The position numbers and the translations under genes were made by a program. From NCBI GenBank assembly GCA_902790465.1, contig CADASF010000004.1, positions 1 through 58,768 of the forward strand: DNA of 58,768 nt, in the 5' to 3' direction. Every line of letters starts with the position of its first letter. Within the stretch, counting starts at the first letter, position 1. The notes under the pieces were generated by a model, which was given only the letters and a program-made list of their open reading frames with translations, searched no databases and was not told where the DNA came from. The DNA is from an uncultured bacterium. Lineage in GTDB: Bacteria > Vulcanimicrobiota > CADAWZ01. This document shows, piece after piece, positions 47,266 through 55,219 of the stretch.

Positions 47266-47309
47266 ATAATAAATAAGAAGAACTTCCCTAAACATTGGAG
47301 GTCAAAAAA

Positions 47310-47762
47310 ATGGCATTTACATTTTCATCTCAAGAATTGTGGCAAATTGGTATTTGGGTAGGAGTAGTATTTCTTATTATTATCTCAATAATGGCATGTT
47401 TATCTGGTGGATTAGAAGGCTTGTGGTACAATTTTTGTAGTTGGTGTGAAGATATAGATTTTGCTTTTAGGAGCTTTGATTTAGTAGCTTGTTATTATGA
47501 ATTTATGATTAACTTAAAAATATTTTCCCTGAATTTATATTGCAGTTTAATCCAATGTTTTATATTATTTATAAAAAATCCCTTAATACTTGTATTTTTT
47601 ATTGTAACAATAATATTTAGTTGGATTTGTCCAATTAAAGGATCTACAATAATTTATAAGTTATTACCTGTATTGTATTTCATAATTTTGTTGGTTTATA
47701 CTTTTATTTCAATGAAAAAATGGGATGAAGATTATGATAAGAAAAATAAAGATATGAAATAG
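47310..47762 (+). CDS. Unknown membrane protein, first gene of a two-gene cassette
   Basis: A 150-residue integral membrane protein with three to four helices (about 13-34, 70-107 probably as two, and 115-136), several Cys in the first half (ACLSGG, FCSWCED) and a charged C-terminus. I recognise no family. ATG 47310 follows GGAGG at 9 bases. It has its own promoter and lies 11 bases before the repeat protein at 47774. A terminator stands on each side, so the two genes form an isolated unit. Confidence 0.75.
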   Translation: MAFTFSSQELWQIGIWVGVVFLIIISIMACLSGGLEGLWYNFCSWCEDIDFAFRSFDLVACYYEFMINLKIFSLNLYCSLIQCFILFIKNPLILVFFIVTIIFSWICPIKGSTIIYKLLPVLYFIILLVYTFISMKKWDEDYDKKNKDMK

Positions 47763-47773
47763 AGGGAAGAAAA

Positions 47774-48562
47774 ATGTTAACTTATTATTTAATATTATTT
47801 ATTCTTTTAATAATTGTTTTTATTTTGTTTAACAATTTTCCAAAGAAAAATAAAGAGAAAGTACTACCTTGTGGTAAAAAATTAAATGAATTAACAGATG
47901 AAGAGTATATTGAATATTTTTTACCATATATTATTCAACGATGGGAAGAACGAGAAAAACCAAGAGGAATGTCTTTGGAAGAATATATTGATAAATATGT
48001 TAGAACTGAAAACAAAGGTATATGTACACCACTTAGACTTTCTATAGAAGAATTGAAACATAATTCAATTACCGATGAGGAATTTTTCGATACATACCTC
48101 TTGGACATAATTAAAGATTGGGAAGCCAATGAAAAAACTAATGGCATCTCTTTAAATAAGTATTTATGGGATAATTACAAAAAAGTTCAAGAAGACGAAA
48201 AATGTGCCAAAATTTTTGTTGATAAAGTTGTTGATATTAGTGATCTTCTAATTATATCTGATTGGAAAAAATGTCTACAAAATGAGGATATATCATTAGA
48301 AGAATTCATTGATAGAGAATATAGAGGTACAAAAGAAGAAAAAGAAAAAATTATTGAGGTAAAAGAAAAAAAGATTAAAGAATATTTGTCATCTCTTGAT
48401 TTTAATGATATTGTTAAGGATTGGAAGAGAGAGCGAAGAGTTGAAGATATATCATTAAAAGATTTTATAAAAAGAGACTATGATTTGCCTCCAAATGTGG
48501 AAAATGAGGATAAAATATTAGAAGAATTTGTGAATAGAGAACTTAAGAAATCTGGAACTTAA
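47774..48562 (+). CDS. Membrane-anchored protein with four W-x9-S-L repeats (novel)
   Basis: A 262-residue protein with one N-terminal membrane helix (3-21) and a highly charged remainder. It contains four copies of a ~37-residue repeat at about 40-76, 99-136, 150-184 and 202-237. Each has a hydrophobic segment, an invariant Trp (57, 116, 164, 217), exactly nine residues, then Ser-Leu (67, 126, 174, 227), an acidic or polar pair and an aromatic/Ile helix (EYIDKY, KYLWDNY, EFIDREY, DFIKRDY). The spacing is identical in all four, so this is a genuine repeat, probably a small helical hairpin. I know no family with this pattern. It forms an operon with the membrane protein 11 bases upstream. Confidence 0.78.
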   Translation: MLTYYLILFILLIIVFILFNNFPKKNKEKVLPCGKKLNELTDEEYIEYFLPYIIQRWEEREKPRGMSLEEYIDKYVRTENKGICTPLRLSIEELKHNSITDEEFFDTYLLDIIKDWEANEKTNGISLNKYLWDNYKKVQEDEKCAKIFVDKVVDISDLLIISDWKKCLQNEDISLEEFIDREYRGTKEEKEKIIEVKEKKIKEYLSSLDFNDIVKDWKRERRVEDISLKDFIKRDYDLPPNVENEDKILEEFVNRELKKSGT

Positions 48563-48579
48563 AAATAACAAGTGAATCA

Positions 48580-48607
48580 AAACCCTTTCAAAAGTTTGAG
48601 AGGGTTT
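48580..48607 (+). terminator. Intrinsic terminator of the W-x9-S-L cassette
   Basis: AAACCCT--CAAA / TTTG--AGGGTTT stem followed by T-rich sequence, 18 bases after the stop. Confidence 0.75.
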
Positions 48608-48716
48608 ATTTTATTTATATAGATGTAAAAAGGAAAAATAAATATTTATATAGAAATTCAACAGTTAACTTATTAAACTAAGTTTATTTTTTTGTGTAAA
48701 AAATAGAGGCTGATAT

Positions 48717-49958
48717 ATGAGCAGTTTAAGTTTAACAGAAACAAGATATAAAGAACACATATCACCTTCAATGACAAGACTTCTAAAATTCAGTGGATTC
48801 TATGCTGAAGAAGTTTCTGCCAATGGAGTATATATATATGATGAAAAGGGAAATGAATACCTCGATTGTTCAGGCGGTTATGGTGTTTTTATTTTAGGAC
48901 ACAGACATCCTGAAGTTGTAAGTGCAGTAAAAGACCAAATAGACAAAATGCCTATGCTTTCACATGTATTTTTTAATCCTGTCCAAGCAGAGCTTGCAGA
49001 AAAACTTGCAAATAAATGTGGTGGAGACCTTCAGTATTGTTTCTTCTGCAATAGTGGAACAGAAGCAGTAGAAGGTGCCATAAAAATTGCAAGACTTGCA
49101 ACAGGCAAAACAACTATTATTTCTACAAAGAATGCCTTCCATGGAAAGACAATGGGTTCACTTTCTGTATCAGGAAGAGAAATGTATAAAAAAGGCTGTG
49201 ATCCACTTCTCCCTGGTACTGTTCAAATTCCATACAATGATGCAGAAGCTCTTGAAAAAACAATAGACGAACACACTGCAGCTTTTATATGTGAACCAAT
49301 TCAAGGCGAAGGCGGAATAAATGTTCCTGATGAAGACTTCTTTATAAAAGTAAAAAAGATTTGTGCTGATAAGGGAATACTTTTTGTAGCAGATGAAATC
49401 CAAAGCGGAATGGGAAGAACAGGAAAATTCCTAGCATTAGACCACTGTGGAATAAAACCAGATATGGTACTTCTTGCAAAGGGTCTTGGCGGTGGTATTG
49501 CTCCAATAGGTGCAATAGTTGCAACAAAACAAGTTTGGCAACCATTCTTTAAAAATCCAACCATCCACACATCAACATTTGGCGGAAATCAACTTGCATG
49601 TAGAGCTGGATTGGCAACATTAGAAGTTTTGGAAAAAGAAAATCTTATTGAAAATGCAAATGAGTTGGGAAAATATTTTATAAGTGGACTTAAAGAAATA
49701 AAATCACGCCATGAAAAAGTAATTGCCGATGTAAGAGGTATAGGTCTCATGATCGGTGTTGAGACAGTTGAAGAAAAATATGGCGGATATATCATATATG
49801 AAATGGCTAAATCAAAAATTACTGCTGTTTATACATTAAATAACCAAAAAGTTATAAGATTTGAGCCTGCCTTGATCATAAAGAAAGAACAAATAGATAG
49901 AGTTTTAAAATCATTTGAAGAAGCCGTAACAAAAGCAGAAAAGGCACTTTCAAAGTAA
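48717..49958 (+). CDS. Class III PLP-dependent aminotransferase
   Basis: A 413-residue fold-type I aminotransferase of the ornithine/4-aminobutyrate/putrescine group. CNSGTEAVEGAIKIAR binds PLP phosphate, KNAFHGKTMGSLS and EPIQGEGGINVP are group signatures, ADEIQSGMGRTG carries the PLP-binding Asp, and LLAKGLGGG has the Schiff-base Lys. The length matches the family. The amino acceptor cannot be read from sequence; enzymes of this class also act on aliphatic aldehydes and amines. It is followed at 24 bases by an SRPBCC gene and, after a repeat-filled gap, by an acyl-ACP-reductase-like gene. AGAGG lies 7 bases before ATG 48717. Confidence 0.93.
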   Translation: MSSLSLTETRYKEHISPSMTRLLKFSGFYAEEVSANGVYIYDEKGNEYLDCSGGYGVFILGHRHPEVVSAVKDQIDKMPMLSHVFFNPVQAELAEKLANKCGGDLQYCFFCNSGTEAVEGAIKIARLATGKTTIISTKNAFHGKTMGSLSVSGREMYKKGCDPLLPGTVQIPYNDAEALEKTIDEHTAAFICEPIQGEGGINVPDEDFFIKVKKICADKGILFVADEIQSGMGRTGKFLALDHCGIKPDMVLLAKGLGGGIAPIGAIVATKQVWQPFFKNPTIHTSTFGGNQLACRAGLATLEVLEKENLIENANELGKYFISGLKEIKSRHEKVIADVRGIGLMIGVETVEEKYGGYIIYEMAKSKITAVYTLNNQKVIRFEPALIIKKEQIDRVLKSFEEAVTKAEKALSK

Positions 49959-49982
49959 AAAAGAGTTAGGAGAAATTAATAA

Positions 49983-50429
49983 ATGCCTTATGTAGAAACA
50001 TCTATTTTCATAGATTCAGAACCGAGAAAAGCATATGAACTTGCAAGTGATATGGAAAGCTATCCAAAATATATGGAAGATGTGGAAAGCGTAACTGTTA
50101 CTGAAAGAGGCGATCATACAACTCTTACAGATTGGGTTTCTAATATCGAAGGAACTCCTATTTATTGGACTGAAAGAGATAATTTTGATGATGATAATCT
50201 TGTTATAACATATCAGTTGACCGAAGGTGATCTCGATAAATTCGAGGGTACTTGGAAATTTGAAAAAAATGGCTCAGGAACTCTTGTTACATTGGGAGTA
50301 GATTTTGATTTTGGCATTCCACATCTTGAGGAATTGATTGGTCCTACACTTATAATTAAAGTAAGGGAAAATTCTGATATGATGCTTGCAGGGTTAAAAT
50401 CACTCTGTGAAAAAGATAAAAAGATATAG
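49983..50429 (+). CDS. SRPBCC (START-like) ligand-binding protein
   Basis: A 148-residue protein of the polyketide cyclase / START superfamily: VETSIFIDSEPRKAYELASDMESYPKY (family opening, given in part), the EGTPIYWTERDNFD strand pair and a C-terminal long helix (MMLAGLKSLCEK). Such proteins bind hydrophobic ligands in a cavity or act as cyclases; related small proteins are linked to coenzyme Q and fatty-acid-derived compounds. It shares a transcript with the aminotransferase. The ligand is unknown, but the nearby acyl reductase homologue makes an acyl or aldehyde ligand a fair guess. Confidence 0.82.
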   Translation: MPYVETSIFIDSEPRKAYELASDMESYPKYMEDVESVTVTERGDHTTLTDWVSNIEGTPIYWTERDNFDDDNLVITYQLTEGDLDKFEGTWKFEKNGSGTLVTLGVDFDFGIPHLEELIGPTLIIKVRENSDMMLAGLKSLCEKDKKI

Positions 50430-50436
50430 TGCTTAC

Positions 50437-50852
50437 GCCACTTTTTGGGATATAAGATGTTCACTATATATAACACAAAAATGTTTTGCTAAAACATCAA
50501 CTTTATTATAATAGCCTTTAATATTTAGTTTTAAGTTTTGCGGTGCAATACACTCACCAATTTTTTTTCTCCTTTCTATTTTAAGAAAGGGGCTTAATTG
50601 GGAAACATTTTTCTCTTGTTATTTATCTAATTTTATTTAAAATAGAGAATATTTTAAGTAAGAGCTTTCTTTTTAGAAACTACTACGAGAAAAAGTGATG
50701 CAGTTCCAGTATTTTTTCTCCTTGGAGCAAATAAGCTCCTAAATTTTTAATTTAGGAGAAAAAATTAAGGCAAGGAGCTAATTTGCCCGCATTGCACCTC
50801 AAAACTTTACTTAATTGGCAAAACATTTTTAATACATATAATAAAAAGTGGC
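50437..50852. mobile_element. 416-bp non-coding palindromic element (MITE-like)
   Basis: Three blocks on the left recur inverted and in mirrored order on the right: GCCACTTTTT (50437 / 50843), AAAAATGTTTTGC (50477 / 50818) and AAGTTTTGCGGTGCAAT (50533 / 50791, one mismatch). The centre has nested hairpins, notably CTCCTAAAT / ATTTAGGAG at 50736-50758. A further right-end copy is at 51053-51077. No reading frame inside. It occupies most of the gene-free region 50430-51188; a decayed terminator-like hairpin lies at 50928-50960. Confidence 0.6.
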
Positions 50853-51052
50853 TAATTGGTAGTTTACCAACATCCCCTAAGAAAAATAATAATATTTTAG
50901 TTTTGTGTATAATTAGCCAATTCAGGGGGGCTGTGAAAAAATAGTTTGTTTTCAGCTCTCGCAACTTTTTGGATGCAGAGAGAAATTAACTGCAAAATAA
51001 ATTAATAACAAAAATTGATTTCTGTGGCACGCAAGGATCGTAAATGTGTGAC

Positions 51053-51077
51053 TTGTACCGCAAAACTTTACTTAATT
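51053..51077. repeat. Extra right-end copy of the 50.4-kb element
   Basis: TTGTACCGCAAAACTTTACT plus TAATT matches 50792-50816 at 23 of 25 bases in the same orientation. It lies about 110 bases before the acyl-ACP-reductase-like gene. Confidence 0.55.
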
Positions 51078-51188
51078 CTATTGGATAGTTTACTAACAAA
51101 CATAACAAAATGTTTGCCAAAATCAATAGACATAGAGAGAGAAGAGATATAAAAGAGAGATAAAAAGATATAGTAATGAGGACATGAC

Positions 51189-52271
51189 ATGAGAAAATTT
51201 GGATTTTTTGTCCATCCTCTCGATATGAGAGATGTTGTTAGAATTGCTCCTCAAGCTGAGGGTAAGAGAAGACCACTTGTTGAAAAAATTTTGGAATGGA
51301 CACCTTCACATGAAGTTTCACATATAACAGGATTGAAATGCGCAGATGGAGAGGAAGCAGAAGGTTGGTTTATAGGTATTCCACTTTTGCCTAATCAGAT
51401 AATAGATTTGCCAAAAGATTTTGTTCTTTCAAGACTAAAAGAAGGAGCAGAAATTGCAATAAAAAATGGAGCTCAAATATTAGGACTTGGTGGCTATACA
51501 TCTGTTATTGGAAAAGGTGGAATTGAAATTGCTAACATGGTTCCTGAGATTCCAATGACAAGTGGAAATAGTTGCACTGCTGCCGCTGCTATGGATGCTG
51601 CAGGAAGAGCTGCGGAGAGAATCGGAATCGACATAAAATCAGCAAAACTAGCAGTAGTTGGTGGAAGTGGTTCGATAGGTTCTGTATGTGCTAAAGTATT
51701 GGCAGCAAATGAAGATTTTGCAGAAATAGTTTTGATCGCAAGAAATCAACACAGACTTGAAAAAATTGCAGATGAGATTCACACTGAGACAGGTAAACAT
51801 GTTTTGACTTGTAATTCTGTTGAAGAAGGATTGAAAGATGCAGATATAGTTATTTCTGCAACAAGTTCTTCTGGTGATATAATAAAACCAGAATACATAA
51901 AATCAGGTGCTTTAATATGTGATGTTTCACTTCCACATGATGTTTGCAGAGAAGTTTCGACATTGAGACCAGATGTATTGGTAATAGAAGGTGGATTAAT
52001 GCAAGTTCCTGAGGGAGTTGATTTGGATTACAACTTTGGTTTTGCTCCAGGTATTGCTCTTGCATGTATGACAGAAACTATGGCATTGTGCATGGAAGGT
52101 AGATTTGAAAATTACAGTATTGGAAGAGGACTTCAGATTGAGAAAGTTAAGGAAATATACCAGATAGCCAAAAGACAGGGATTCACTCTCGCAGGTTTCA
52201 GAAGTTTTGAGAGACTTGTAACAGATGAAATGATCGACAATGTAATTAAAGCTATTAAAGGGAGAAAATAA
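51189..52271 (+). CDS. Homologue of cyanobacterial long-chain acyl-ACP reductase
   Basis: A 360-residue Rossmann protein usually auto-named shikimate/quinate dehydrogenase, but its layout is that of acyl-[ACP] reductase (AAR): GLGGYTSVIGKGG near 100, TSGNSCTAA near 124, the dinucleotide loop VVGGSGSIGS (157-166), and LACMTETMAL with Cys293. In cyanobacterial AAR the matching segment (ACFAEAM) holds the catalytic Cys near 294 that forms the acyl-enzyme. The following GRGLQIEKVKEI also matches. It may reduce acyl thioesters to aldehydes with NADPH. No aldehyde-deformylating oxygenase is near, as fits an anaerobe. The next gene starts immediately after its stop. Confidence 0.82.
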   Translation: MRKFGFFVHPLDMRDVVRIAPQAEGKRRPLVEKILEWTPSHEVSHITGLKCADGEEAEGWFIGIPLLPNQIIDLPKDFVLSRLKEGAEIAIKNGAQILGLGGYTSVIGKGGIEIANMVPEIPMTSGNSCTAAAAMDAAGRAAERIGIDIKSAKLAVVGGSGSIGSVCAKVLAANEDFAEIVLIARNQHRLEKIADEIHTETGKHVLTCNSVEEGLKDADIVISATSSSGDIIKPEYIKSGALICDVSLPHDVCREVSTLRPDVLVIEGGLMQVPEGVDLDYNFGFAPGIALACMTETMALCMEGRFENYSIGRGLQIEKVKEIYQIAKRQGFTLAGFRSFERLVTDEMIDNVIKAIKGRK

Positions 52272-53177
52272 GTGAAACACATAGTAAGTGTAAGTCTCGG
52301 AAGTTCAAGAAGAGACCATAAAGCAGAAGTTGAACTTTTGGGCGAAAAATTTTTAATCGAGAGAATAGGTCTTGATGGAGATACAAGAAAAGCTAAAGAT
52401 TTACTTAAAAAACTTGACGGTACTGTCGATGTTATAGGTCTTGGCGGTCTCGATGTATATCTCTATTCAAAACATGGAAAATACGCATTAAGAGAAGGAT
52501 TAAATCTCTTAAATGTATTGAAAAAAACTCCAGCTGTTGATGGAAGTGGATTAAAAAATTCACTTGAAGCAGAAGTCATAAAAACAATAGCAAAAGATGA
52601 AAGATTTCCACTTGATAAAAAACATGTTCTAATGGTTTCAGCTATGGACAGATTTGGAATGGCTGAAGCATTTGTATCTGCTGGTTCAGAAATGATATTT
52701 GGCGATTTGATTTTTTCAATGTCAACAGATAAGCCAATTTATACATTGGAAGAATTAGCTAAATATGCAGATAAATATTTACCTGAAATTTCAAAATTGC
52801 CCCTTGCTTTTATTTATCCACTTGGAAAACATCAAAATGAGCCTTCAAAAAATAAATTTCCAAAATATTATGAGTGGGCCGATTACATAGCTGGAGATTT
52901 CCACTATATAAGAAAATATTTGCCACCAGAGATTAAGGGAAAAGTTATAATAACAAATACTGTTACACAGGCAAATATAAATGATCTAAAAGACAGGGGA
53001 GTTTCATATTTGATAACGACAACTCCAAATTTTGGAGGCAGATCTTTTGGTACAAATGTTCTTGAAGCTGTATTTTTATCTATTCTTCAGAAACCATGGG
53101 AAGAAGTAAAGCCTGAAGATTATCTAAATCTAATAAAACAACTCGGATTAAAGCCGAGAATTGAGAAATTAAATTAA
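52272..53177 (+). CDS. Quinate 5-dehydrogenase-like protein paired with the acyl reductase homologue
   Basis: A 301-residue cytoplasmic protein of a family annotated quinate 5-dehydrogenase, mostly in anaerobic Firmicutes, without good functional proof. Visible are VSVSLGSSRRDHKAEVELLG, IERIGLDGD, VIGLGGLDVYLY, VDGSGLKN, VSAMDRFGMAEAFVSAGSE, AGDFHYIRKY and TNTVTQANI. I see no canonical dinucleotide GxGxxG loop of shikimate dehydrogenases, so the name is doubtful. GTG 52272 begins right after the TAA of the reductase homologue, with GGGAG upstream: strong translational coupling, pointing to a shared complex or consecutive steps. It is followed by greA at 21 bases. Confidence 0.8.
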   Translation: MKHIVSVSLGSSRRDHKAEVELLGEKFLIERIGLDGDTRKAKDLLKKLDGTVDVIGLGGLDVYLYSKHGKYALREGLNLLNVLKKTPAVDGSGLKNSLEAEVIKTIAKDERFPLDKKHVLMVSAMDRFGMAEAFVSAGSEMIFGDLIFSMSTDKPIYTLEELAKYADKYLPEISKLPLAFIYPLGKHQNEPSKNKFPKYYEWADYIAGDFHYIRKYLPPEIKGKVIITNTVTQANINDLKDRGVSYLITTTPNFGGRSFGTNVLEAVFLSILQKPWEEVKPEDYLNLIKQLGLKPRIEKLN

Positions 53178-53198
53178 TTTTTAAGGAAGTGAATAAAA

Positions 53199-53708
53199 AT
53201 GGCAACATCACAGGGAAAGGAAATAATTCTAACAAGAGAAGCATTTGAAAATTGCCAAAAAAAGCTTGATTATTTTAAAACTCACCACAGAAAAGCTGTT
53301 GCAGAGAGAATAAAACTTGCTAAGGAATTCGGTGATCTTTCTGAAAATGCTGAATATGAAGATGCAAAAAATGAACAGGCTTTTATTGAAGGAGAGATTT
53401 TAAATCTTGAAAATACAATAAGATATGCCAAGGTAATTGATGAAAAAGAAGTAATAAGAGACATTGTAAATTTAGGTCTTACTGCATGTATAAGAGATAT
53501 TGAAACAGATGAGACATTTGAAATGACAATAGTTGGCTCTCTTGAATCTGATCCTTCAAATGGGTATATCTCAAATGAATCACCTATAGGAAAGGCCATT
53601 TTGGGTAGAGCTTTAGGAGAAGAAGTTGAAGTTGAAGTTCCAAATGGAAAAGTAATATACAAAATAGAGAAAATTTATCAAAAACAAAAACAATTTGACA
53701 TGGCATAA
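53199..53708 (+). CDS. greA: Transcript cleavage factor GreA
   Basis: A 169-residue GreA. The N-terminal coiled coil (residues 8-80) includes LAKEFGDLSENAEYEDAKNE (tip acidic residues D and E that enter the RNA polymerase channel), and the C-terminal FKBP-like domain contains SNESPIGKAILG. It rescues backtracked RNA polymerase. It is 14 bases before lysS, a pairing seen in many bacteria. ATG 53199 follows AAGGAAGTG. Confidence 0.96.
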   Translation: MATSQGKEIILTREAFENCQKKLDYFKTHHRKAVAERIKLAKEFGDLSENAEYEDAKNEQAFIEGEILNLENTIRYAKVIDEKEVIRDIVNLGLTACIRDIETDETFEMTIVGSLESDPSNGYISNESPIGKAILGRALGEEVEVEVPNGKVIYKIEKIYQKQKQFDMA

Positions 53709-53722
53709 TTTTGGAGGAAGTT

Positions 53723-55219
53723 ATGGAAAAGGAATTACTTCCTGAGTCTCTTCAAGGTGAACAAGAACTTGAGAGAGTTAAAAATATGGAAGCTGTAAAA
53801 GAAACGGGGGCAGACCCTTATGGTCAACAATACAACAGAACAGACACAGCTTCTTCAGTAAGAGGAAAATTTGCTGATATAGAAGAAGGCGTAGAAAGTG
53901 AAGAATCAGTTTCAGTAGCAGGGAGAATAACTGCAATTCGTTCACATGGCAAGACATCGTTCATGACCTTTGCAGATGTAACTGGAACTCTTCAAGTATA
54001 TCTTAGAAAAGATGTTTTGGGCGAAGAAAAATTTGCTCAAATGAAACTAATCGACTTGGGAGATATAATTGGTTTTACAGGAAAGATTTTTAAAACAAAA
54101 ACTGGTGAATTGACAGTTTTTGCAAAAGGATTTGAATTCTTGTCAAAATCACTTCACCCAATGCCAGAAAAATGGCATGGTTTAAAAGATGTTGAAGTAA
54201 AATATCGTCGTCGTTATCTCGATTTGATAACAGATGAAAAATCAAGAAATACATTTATTTTGAGAAGTAAGATAATTGCTTCAATGAGAAATCTTCTAAA
54301 CTCAAAGGGATTTTTTGAAATGGAAACCCCTTGTATGTCATCATTGGCAGGAGGAGCTGCTGCAAGACCATTTATAACACACCACAACGCATTAGATATA
54401 GATATGTATCTCAGAATTGCAACAGAGTTACATTTAAAAAGATGTCTTGTCGGTGGTCTTGAAAAAGTATATGAAATAGGTCGTCTTTTCAGAAATGAAG
54501 GACTTGACACAAGACACAATCCAGAATTCACAACTATAGAATTGTATGAAGCATATTCTGACTATAAGGGAATGATGGATTTAGCTGAGGAGATCTTCAG
54601 GGATGCAGCAAATGTAGTTGGTGCAGGCGATACAATTATGTATCAGGGGCAGGAGATCTCAATCAAAGCTCCATTTGCACGCTTGACAATGGACGAAGCA
54701 CTTCAAAAATGGGGAAATATCTCAATAGCTGATTTAAGAAACGAAGAAAAAGCTCTTGAAATTGCAAAGCAATACAAAATTGCTTACAAAAAGGGCGATC
54801 CAATAGGTCATTTGATTGACAAAGTATTTGAAGCAGTTGCAGAACCTCATTTGGTCAATCCAACATTTATAACAGATTATCCAATAGAGATTTCTCCACT
54901 TGCAAAAAAGCAAAAAGAAGACCCAACACTTACATATAGATTTGAATTGTTTATCTGTAATATGGAATTTGCTAATGCTTTTTCTGAATTAAACGATCCT
55001 ATTGATCAAAGAGAAAGATTTATGGCACAGGCAAAACTCAAAGCCTGTGGCGATGAAGAAGCACATGTACTTGATGAAGACTTCTTATTAGCTCTTGAAT
55101 ATGGAATGCCACCTGCAGGAGGTATGGGAATCGGAATTGACAGAATGATAATGTTATTCACAGATTCAGCTTCAATAAGAGATGTCATTCTCTTCCCGAC
55201 CATGAAAGTTATAGATTAG
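53723..55219 (+). CDS. lysS: Lysyl-tRNA synthetase, class II
   Basis: A 498-residue LysS. An N-terminal OB-fold anticodon-binding domain (about 55-160: VAGRITAIRSHGKTSFM) precedes the class II core with FMETPCM-like motif 1 (FFEMETPCMS), motif 2 FRNEGLDTRHNPEFT and motif 3 GMGIGIDRMIML. It charges tRNA-Lys. ATG 53723 follows TTGGAGGAAG; the in-frame TTG at 53711 is part of that site. It closes the greA operon and is followed by a strong terminator. Confidence 0.97.
   Translation: MEKELLPESLQGEQELERVKNMEAVKETGADPYGQQYNRTDTASSVRGKFADIEEGVESEESVSVAGRITAIRSHGKTSFMTFADVTGTLQVYLRKDVLGEEKFAQMKLIDLGDIIGFTGKIFKTKTGELTVFAKGFEFLSKSLHPMPEKWHGLKDVEVKYRRRYLDLITDEKSRNTFILRSKIIASMRNLLNSKGFFEMETPCMSSLAGGAAARPFITHHNALDIDMYLRIATELHLKRCLVGGLEKVYEIGRLFRNEGLDTRHNPEFTTIELYEAYSDYKGMMDLAEEIFRDAANVVGAGDTIMYQGQEISIKAPFARLTMDEALQKWGNISIADLRNEEKALEIAKQYKIAYKKGDPIGHLIDKVFEAVAEPHLVNPTFITDYPIEISPLAKKQKEDPTLTYRFELFICNMEFANAFSELNDPIDQRERFMAQAKLKACGDEEAHVLDEDFLLALEYGMPPAGGMGIGIDRMIMLFTDSASIRDVILFPTMKVID

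What the first reader, a model, noticed from the sequence alone, without database searches (positions are those of the whole stretch)
48717..53177. Acyl-ACP-reductase-like gene in an aminotransferase/SRPBCC/dehydrogenase-like cluster
The protein at 51189 keeps the AAR hallmarks, including the ACMTETM segment with Cys293 that corresponds to the catalytic Cys of cyanobacterial AAR, and the NADPH loop. It is coupled with zero gap to a quinate-dehydrogenase-like protein of unproven function. Upstream lie a class III aminotransferase and an SRPBCC hydrophobic-ligand binder. With no oxygen-dependent deformylase, an aldehyde product could be aminated to a fatty amine, oxidised, or used in ether-type lipids. 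This would be an undescribed acyl-aldehyde pathway in an anaerobe.
Basis: partly seen in the sequence, partly recalled or inferred. Interest (0 to 1): 0.72.

Follow-up and report, generated by a model that had tools for sequence, protein, structure and literature searches.

The report
Phylum-wide operon probably making fatty amines
Four neighbouring genes, kept together across almost a whole phylum of little-studied bacteria, look like a kit that turns fatty acids into fatty amines, probably for unusual membrane lipids whose biosynthetic enzymes had not been identified in the literature I could read.

Summary
The 51189 protein is an acyl-thioester reductase of the AAR fold. Its catalytic Cys293 is invariant in 51 orthologues. 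It lies directly before the 52272 protein and downstream of a class III aminotransferase (AT) and an SRPBCC protein.

The sharper reading is that reductase plus AT is a split form of the PigE/TamH/KecF fusion enzymes (acyl-ACP to aldehyde to amine). AT-SRPBCC-AAR-"QDH" is a core operon of the phylum, inferred to be Eremiobacterota/Vulcanimicrobiota: AAR is in 83 of 85 good genomes, and 51 of 57 loci keep all four genes in order. The alkane-forming partner ADO is absent from 146 of 147 genomes, most members lack PS decarboxylase, and the one cultivated member shows only unidentified polar lipids.

Best explanation: the operon makes long-chain alkylamines for membrane lipids, most plausibly N-glyceroyl-alkylamine phosphoglycolipids as in Deinococcus-Thermus and Moorella. 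The chemistry rests on strong homology; the lipid destination is inference.

The 52272 protein is not shown to be a quinate dehydrogenase; it looks like a divergent AAR-fold paralogue without the dinucleotide motif.

New variant of a known kind. It would make an open lipid-biosynthesis question testable.

The parts
48580..48607 (+). intrinsic terminator-like hairpin that closes the upstream transcription unit
   Evidence: 12-pair stem followed by a T-run; region has 9 such sites against 2.8 expected
48717..49958 (+). class III (PLP) aminotransferase, PatA/PigE-like; presumed PLP lysine Lys255 (motif AKGLGGG)
   Evidence: PF00202, 1e-115; putrescine AT 433 bits; PigE 390 bits; trees
49983..50429 (+). 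SRPBCC/START-like hydrophobic-ligand protein
   Evidence: PF03364, 7e-18; nearest solved: Thermus TTHA0849, 2d4r, 8e-23
50430..51188 (.). 759-bp AT-rich, inverted-repeat-rich intergenic stretch peculiar to this genus (567 bp in G001, 15-25 bp in sister genera)
51189..52271 (+). acyl-ACP/acyl-thioester reductase of the AAR/PigE-N family
51660..51680 (+). GxxGxxG dinucleotide-binding motif of AAR (residues 158-164)
52065..52067 (+). codon of catalytic Cys293 (SeAAR Cys294 equivalent)
52272..53177 (+). 'QDH': 301-aa partner, AAR-like two-domain fold, no GxGxxG; housekeeping-level conservation
   Evidence: (no family)
53199..55219 (+). greA and lysS, conserved downstream neighbours across the phylum

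Best explanation
The operon makes long-chain alkylamines. (1) The AAR-type reductase takes an acyl chain from acyl-ACP onto Cys293 and reduces it with NAD(P)H to a fatty aldehyde (strong homology, not assayed). (2) The class III aminotransferase converts the aldehyde to a primary alkylamine with an amino-acid donor such as glutamate (inferred from PigE/TamH/KecF and operon conservation). (3) The SRPBCC protein holds or hands over the hydrophobic aldehyde or amine, and the 52272 protein, a divergent AAR-fold partner, acts with AAR or in a later step (inference). (4) The alkylamine goes into membrane lipids in place of PE, most plausibly N-glyceroyl-alkylamine phosphoglycolipids as in Deinococcus, Thermus and Moorella (inference). 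Step-wise confidence: step 1 about 0.8, step 2 about 0.65, membrane-lipid destination about 0.5, that exact lipid about 0.35.
For: AAR matches the PigE N-terminus best by sequence and the AAR/TAD fold with a clear drop to the next family. Cys293 is invariant. All annotated plasmid relatives are fused to class III ATs, in both domain orders. TamH converts C12-ACP to C12 amine in vitro (PMC9594044); PigE reduces a thioester and transaminates (PMC8341465); KecF is predicted to do the same (PMC6498172). The order AT-SRPBCC-AAR-QDH is kept in 51 of 57 loci; AAR is in 83/85 and QDH in 81/85 good genomes, at GreA-like conservation. SRPBCC relatives elsewhere sit beside class III ATs, and in S. clavuligerus and Leptospira near SDR-type thioester reductases. 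ADO absent in 146/147; PS decarboxylase in only 8/41 good genomes. V. alpinus has only unidentified polar and glycolipids (PMC9758169). SRPBCC's nearest solved relative is from Thermus, and the AAR model rings in both Deinococcota control genomes. Thermus and Meiothermus carry N-glyceroyl alkylamine lipids (PMC3035268), and the enzymes for the third chain were unidentified in 2022 (PMC9636437).
Against: No activity or lipid data exist for these proteins. The AT is closer to E. coli putrescine AT (347 bits) than to the PigE AT domain (281 bits), and its tree position relative to the fused ATs changes with sampling. V. alpinus lipids were reported only as unidentified, not as alkylamines. Some families with the operon (f12, f13) do have PS decarboxylase. 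The Deinococcota link rests on one SRPBCC structure and a control ring without scores, and M. jannaschii also rings. Thermus, Deinococcus and Moorella genomes could not be scanned for the operon.
Confidence: 0.5

Rival explanations
1. The operon makes an alkylamine, but for a small secreted or signalling metabolite, as in the prodigiosin, tambjamine or koreenceine pathways, not for bulk membrane lipid.
For: All characterised reductase-AT relatives are in natural-product pathways, and several plasmid relatives are too.
Against: Single-copy and near-universal in a phylum with housekeeping-level conservation, beside greA-lysS; no dedicated ACP, adenylation, PKS or transporter genes were seen to recur in the neighbourhood.
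Confidence: 0.15
2. The aldehyde is used for ether lipids/plasmalogens, fatty alcohols or wax, and the aminotransferase acts on something else such as polyamines.
For: AT is close to putrescine AT; some phylum members have a PlsA-type DUF2229 protein.
Against: The PlsA marker is in only 9/58 genomes while AAR is in all 58; AT and AAR share an operon throughout; relatives are fused AT-AAR enzymes.
Confidence: 0.15
3. The set works on a non-fatty acyl thioester in amino-acid or related central metabolism (its neighbour is lysS), with AT in an ArgD/LysJ-like role.
For: Constant neighbours greA and lysS; the window genome has no second class III AT at 1e-30, so this AT may also serve as ArgD there.
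Against: The other relatives searched have further class III AT paralogues, several of them grouping with E. coli ArgD; the AAR fold and Cys match acyl-ACP reductases; an SRPBCC lipid-type binder is fixed in the operon.
Confidence: 0.12
4. The 51189 and 52272 proteins are ordinary shikimate/quinate dehydrogenases.
For: Weak Pfam Shikimate_DH match (9e-15) to the Rossmann part of 51189.
Against: Full-length best matches are PigE and AAR with catalytic Cys; 52272 has no family match and no GxGxxG.
Confidence: 0.02

Closest known systems
PigE (prodigiosin), TamH (tambjamine), KecF (koreenceine): fused thioester reductase-transaminases
   Same: Same two catalytic units: AAR-type reductase with conserved Cys and a class III AT; acyl-ACP to aldehyde to amine
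   Different: Here two separate genes with SRPBCC between them and a second AAR-like partner; phylum-wide core rather than a sporadic natural-product gene; NCBIfam PigE cut-off (850) not met
Cyanobacterial acyl-ACP reductase (AAR, TIGR04058) of the AAR-ADO alkane pathway
   Same: Fold (TM about 0.75), Cys, GxxGxxG, ARN loop
   Different: 110 bits against the 449.7 equivalog cut-off; no ADO partner; AT partner instead
N-glyceroyl-alkylamine phosphoglycolipids of Deinococcus, Thermus, Meiothermus and Moorella
   Same: Need a long-chain alkylamine; SRPBCC relative solved from Thermus; PE absent or unreported
   Different: Link to this operon is inferred; no lipid data for this phylum beyond 'unidentified' spots
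AT-SRPBCC clusters on Streptomyces, Nostoc and Leptospira plasmids
   Same: Class III AT next to an SRPBCC relative, with SDR thioester reductases in two of them
   Different: A different reductase family replaces AAR; acyl-CoA dehydrogenase and other tailoring genes present

Membership tests
AAR-fold acyl-thioester reductases | catalytic Cys in the (A/G)C(M/F/L)xE segment | tested here: met
   invariant in 51 orthologues; aligns with SeAAR C294 and PigE
AAR-fold acyl-thioester reductases | AAR fold and GxxGxxG Rossmann motif | tested here: met
   TM 0.72-0.79 to 6jzq/6jzy; motif
AAR-fold acyl-thioester reductases | NAD(P)H-dependent reduction of acyl-ACP to aldehyde | not testable with these tools
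   needs an enzyme assay
Cyanobacterial AAR equivalog (TIGR04058) | score over the curated cut-off of 449.7 bits | tested here: not met
   109.7 bits
Cyanobacterial AAR equivalog (TIGR04058) | ADO partner in the genome | tested here: not met
   1 of 147 genomes, not this one
PigE/TamH/KecF bifunctional enzymes | reductase and class III AT fused in one chain | tested here: not met
   separate ORFs; score below the PigE cut-off
PigE/TamH/KecF bifunctional enzymes | both catalytic units present and genetically linked | tested here: met
   same operon-like cluster in 51 of 57 loci
N-glyceroyl-alkylamine lipid biosynthesis | alkylamine-containing phosphoglycolipid in the cell | not testable with these tools
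   V. alpinus lipids reported only as unidentified
N-glyceroyl-alkylamine lipid biosynthesis | operon present in Deinococcus/Thermus/Moorella producers | tested here: inconclusive
   AAR model rings in both Deinococcota controls without scores, also in M. jannaschii; SRPBCC relative in Thermus; genomes could not be scanned
Quinate/shikimate dehydrogenase (52272 protein) | match to a shikimate/quinate DH family model and GxGxxG | tested here: not met
   no Pfam or NCBIfam hit; motif absent from the conserved columns
AAR-fold paralogue (52272 protein) | same fold and element order as AAR | tested here: inconclusive
   AAR and TAD give the highest TM among listed hits, 0.49-0.52; element order agrees; profile score 22.0 against a maximum of 19.1 in 30 shuffles

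The most novel reading that the evidence does not exclude
This operon, with its Deinococcus-Thermus and Bacillota counterparts, is the missing biosynthetic module for N-glyceroyl-alkylamine membrane phosphoglycolipids, with the 52272 protein a new AAR-derived enzyme acting after amine formation; PE-free phyla then share an alkylamine-based membrane chemistry.
Probability: 0.33. Interest if true: 0.86.

Novelty: new variant of a known kind. Interest (0 to 1): 0.7.

Why it matters
Alkylamine phosphoglycolipids have been known from Deinococcus since 1985 and are the major phospholipids of Thermus and Meiothermus. A 2022 paper states that the enzymes forming the third hydrophobic chain of Thermus lipids had not been identified (PMC9636437). 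A reductase-plus-transaminase operon that is a core trait of a whole phylum gives concrete candidate genes, predicts the nature of the unidentified polar lipids of Vulcanimicrobium, and would extend fatty-amine chemistry from rare natural products to basic membrane biology. It also places a highly conserved protein family with no Pfam or NCBIfam match (52272) into a pathway.

Tried and rejected
Quinate/shikimate dehydrogenase reading of 52272: no family hit, no solved homologue. AAR-ADO alkane route: ADO absent in 146 of 147. PlsA plasmalogen link: marker in 9 of 58 genomes only. An AT tree to tie the cluster AT specifically to PigE: the first tree grouped them, a second sampling did not, so it is not claimed. 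Relatives of QDH on plasmids: none; AAR or QDH in viral contigs: none. Bale et al. 2025 on Bacillota alkylamine lipids is known only from its citation. Rfam: nothing in 48400-53400.
Full report
OBSERVATION. The AAR gene ends at 52271 and the next ORF begins with GTG at 52272. Upstream of the AT a terminator-like hairpin (48580-48607) closes the previous unit, so the operon plausibly starts at the AT. Downstream lie greA (53199) and lysS (53711) on the same strand.

THE REDUCTASE. NCBIfam gives PigE (NF053554, 207 bits over residues 3-353) ahead of cyanobacterial AAR (TIGR04058, 110 bits, far below its equivalog cut-off of 450). In the PDB the best matches are 4ppm (PigE, 1.4e-36) and 6jzq (AAR, 8e-22). 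Cys293 aligns with SeAAR Cys294, described as the acyl-accepting residue in PMC9594044, and is invariant in 51 orthologues spread over the phylum. The AlphaFold model (pLDDT 91.8) matches AAR (TM 0.72-0.79, E to 5e-23) and the carmabin-pathway TAD domain, after which E-values jump to 3e-8.

THE PARTNERS. A tblastn of AAR against plasmids found 16 records; all 13 that have an annotated gene under the match carry it in a class III aminotransferase gene. Annotated regions show AAR-AT order in prodigiosin-type clusters (Methylocystis, Pseudoalteromonas, Thioclava) and AT-AAR order in Haematobacter, Rhodovulum and Leisingera. Three such fusions are described: PigE (thioester reduction and transamination, PMC8341465), TamH (C12-ACP to C12 aldehyde to C12 amine in vitro, NADH-specific, PMC9594044) and KecF (predicted, PMC6498172). 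So AAR plus AT here is the same pair as two genes. The AT itself is nearest to E. coli putrescine AT (347 bits) and weaker to PigE (281 bits); trees place it near PatA and apart from BioA, but its relation to the fused ATs depends on sampling.

THE SRPBCC PROTEIN is nearest, among solved structures, to Thermus TTHA0849 (2d4r, 8e-23). Plasmid relatives in Streptomyces, Leptospira and Nostoc lie beside or near class III ATs, and in S. clavuligerus and Leptospira near proteins matching the SDR thioester-reductase model TIGR01746. The AT plus SRPBCC plus thioester-reductase set therefore recurs with an unrelated reductase.

THE 52272 PROTEIN has no Pfam or NCBIfam match, no solved homologue and no relative on plasmids. 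It is extraordinarily conserved: 52% or more identity across the phylum and over 60 invariant positions. Its model (pLDDT 92.5) has its highest TM-scores among the listed hits to AAR and TAD (0.49-0.52). The order of strands and helices, the GLGG loop and the segment before the long helix correspond to AAR. A profile comparison of the N-terminal halves aligns the same segments but weakly (score 22.0 against a maximum of 19.1 in 30 shuffles). The Rossmann glycine motif is replaced by a DRFG-type segment. I read it as a likely divergent AAR paralogue, probably not a canonical dehydrogenase; this is suggestive, not shown.

DISTRIBUTION. AAR is found in 58 of 58 relatives and in 138 of 149 phylum genomes, 83 of 85 good ones. 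The 52272 family is in 135 of 149 and 81 of 85; ten genomes lack both. Of 57 loci with sequence, 51 keep AT-SRPBCC-AAR-QDH complete and in order; the other six lack one gene, four of them at a contig end. Median gaps are 7, 2 and -4 bp, and greA-lysS usually follow. SRPBCC and QDH are conserved as strongly as GreA and LysS.

WHICH PHYLUM. G011 is one 3.508-Mb contig with two adjacent reaction-centre genes and about 70% G+C locally. Vulcanimicrobium alpinus is a phototroph with a 3.50-Mb genome at 68.4% G+C (PMC9758169). I therefore infer Eremiobacterota (NCBI Vulcanimicrobiota). The window's own genus includes rumen MAG RUG13696. The operon is thus not specific to anaerobes.

WHERE THE AMINE GOES. 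ADO is absent in 146 of 147 genomes, so the alkane route is out. A PlsA-type marker is in 9 of 58. PS decarboxylase is in 16 of 58 and 8 of 41 good genomes, and in neither the window's genome nor G011, so most members probably lack PE by this route. V. [quoted passage not shown] Thermus and Meiothermus have N-glyceroyl alkylamine phosphoglycolipid as major phospholipid, related to that of Deinococcus; the T. thermophilus alkyl chain is iso-branched, as are V. alpinus fatty acids. PS and PE have not been reported in T. thermophilus, and the enzymes for its third chain were not identified. Moorella thermoacetica also has N-glyceroyl alkylamines. In the control genomes TIGR04058 rings in both Deinococcota, in Synechococcus and in M. 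jannaschii, without scores. From memory, not tested, Moorella-type Clostridia carry paired genes annotated shikimate and quinate dehydrogenase; that is a lead only. Taken together, alkylamine for membrane lipids is the best-supported destination, but no step of it is demonstrated.

SHOWN AND INFERRED. Shown by computation: AAR fold and Cys; operon and phylum-wide conservation; fusion of homologous reductase and AT elsewhere; absence of ADO; scarcity of PS decarboxylase. Inferred: acyl-ACP substrate, amination of the aldehyde, SRPBCC as carrier, role of 52272, alkylamine lipid as product, and the identity of the phylum.

Noticed in passing
L122:4621-7326 (Haematobacter pOT1-1) and L123:4660-7248 (Rhodovulum pRGUI04): AT-AAR fusion genes lie beside VPLPA-CTERM proteins, and in Rhodovulum near the exosortase gene xrtD; an alkylamine could be the amine nucleophile used in sorting or lipidation. 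Untested idea.
   Followed up: no
L125, L126, L127, L128 (Streptomyces, S. clavuligerus, Leptospira, Nostoc plasmids): Class III AT plus SRPBCC with an acyl-CoA dehydrogenase, and in two cases SDR thioester reductases: uncharacterised alkylamine-type clusters.
   Followed up: partly
window 50430-51188: 759-bp AT-rich stretch with inverted repeats between SRPBCC and AAR, present only in this genus and different in the sister species; may be a decayed small mobile element.
   Followed up: partly
G000 whole genome: No second class III aminotransferase at 1e-30, so the usual ArgD seems missing in the window's organism; the operon's AT might also serve in arginine synthesis, or the strain is auxotrophic.
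   Followed up: no
L023-L079: greA-lysS downstream, and in many families dusB-like and coaX-like genes upstream: a long conserved housekeeping neighbourhood around the operon.
   Followed up: partly
G138:C230:30633-31253: The single phylum genome of 147 with an ADO-family match; it also has the AAR operon genes, so it might make alkanes.
   Followed up: no
window 47295-48562: Two ORFs upstream of the operon without any Pfam or NCBIfam match (155 and 262 aa); the second shows repeated 'ISLEE(F/Y)I'-like segments.
   Followed up: no
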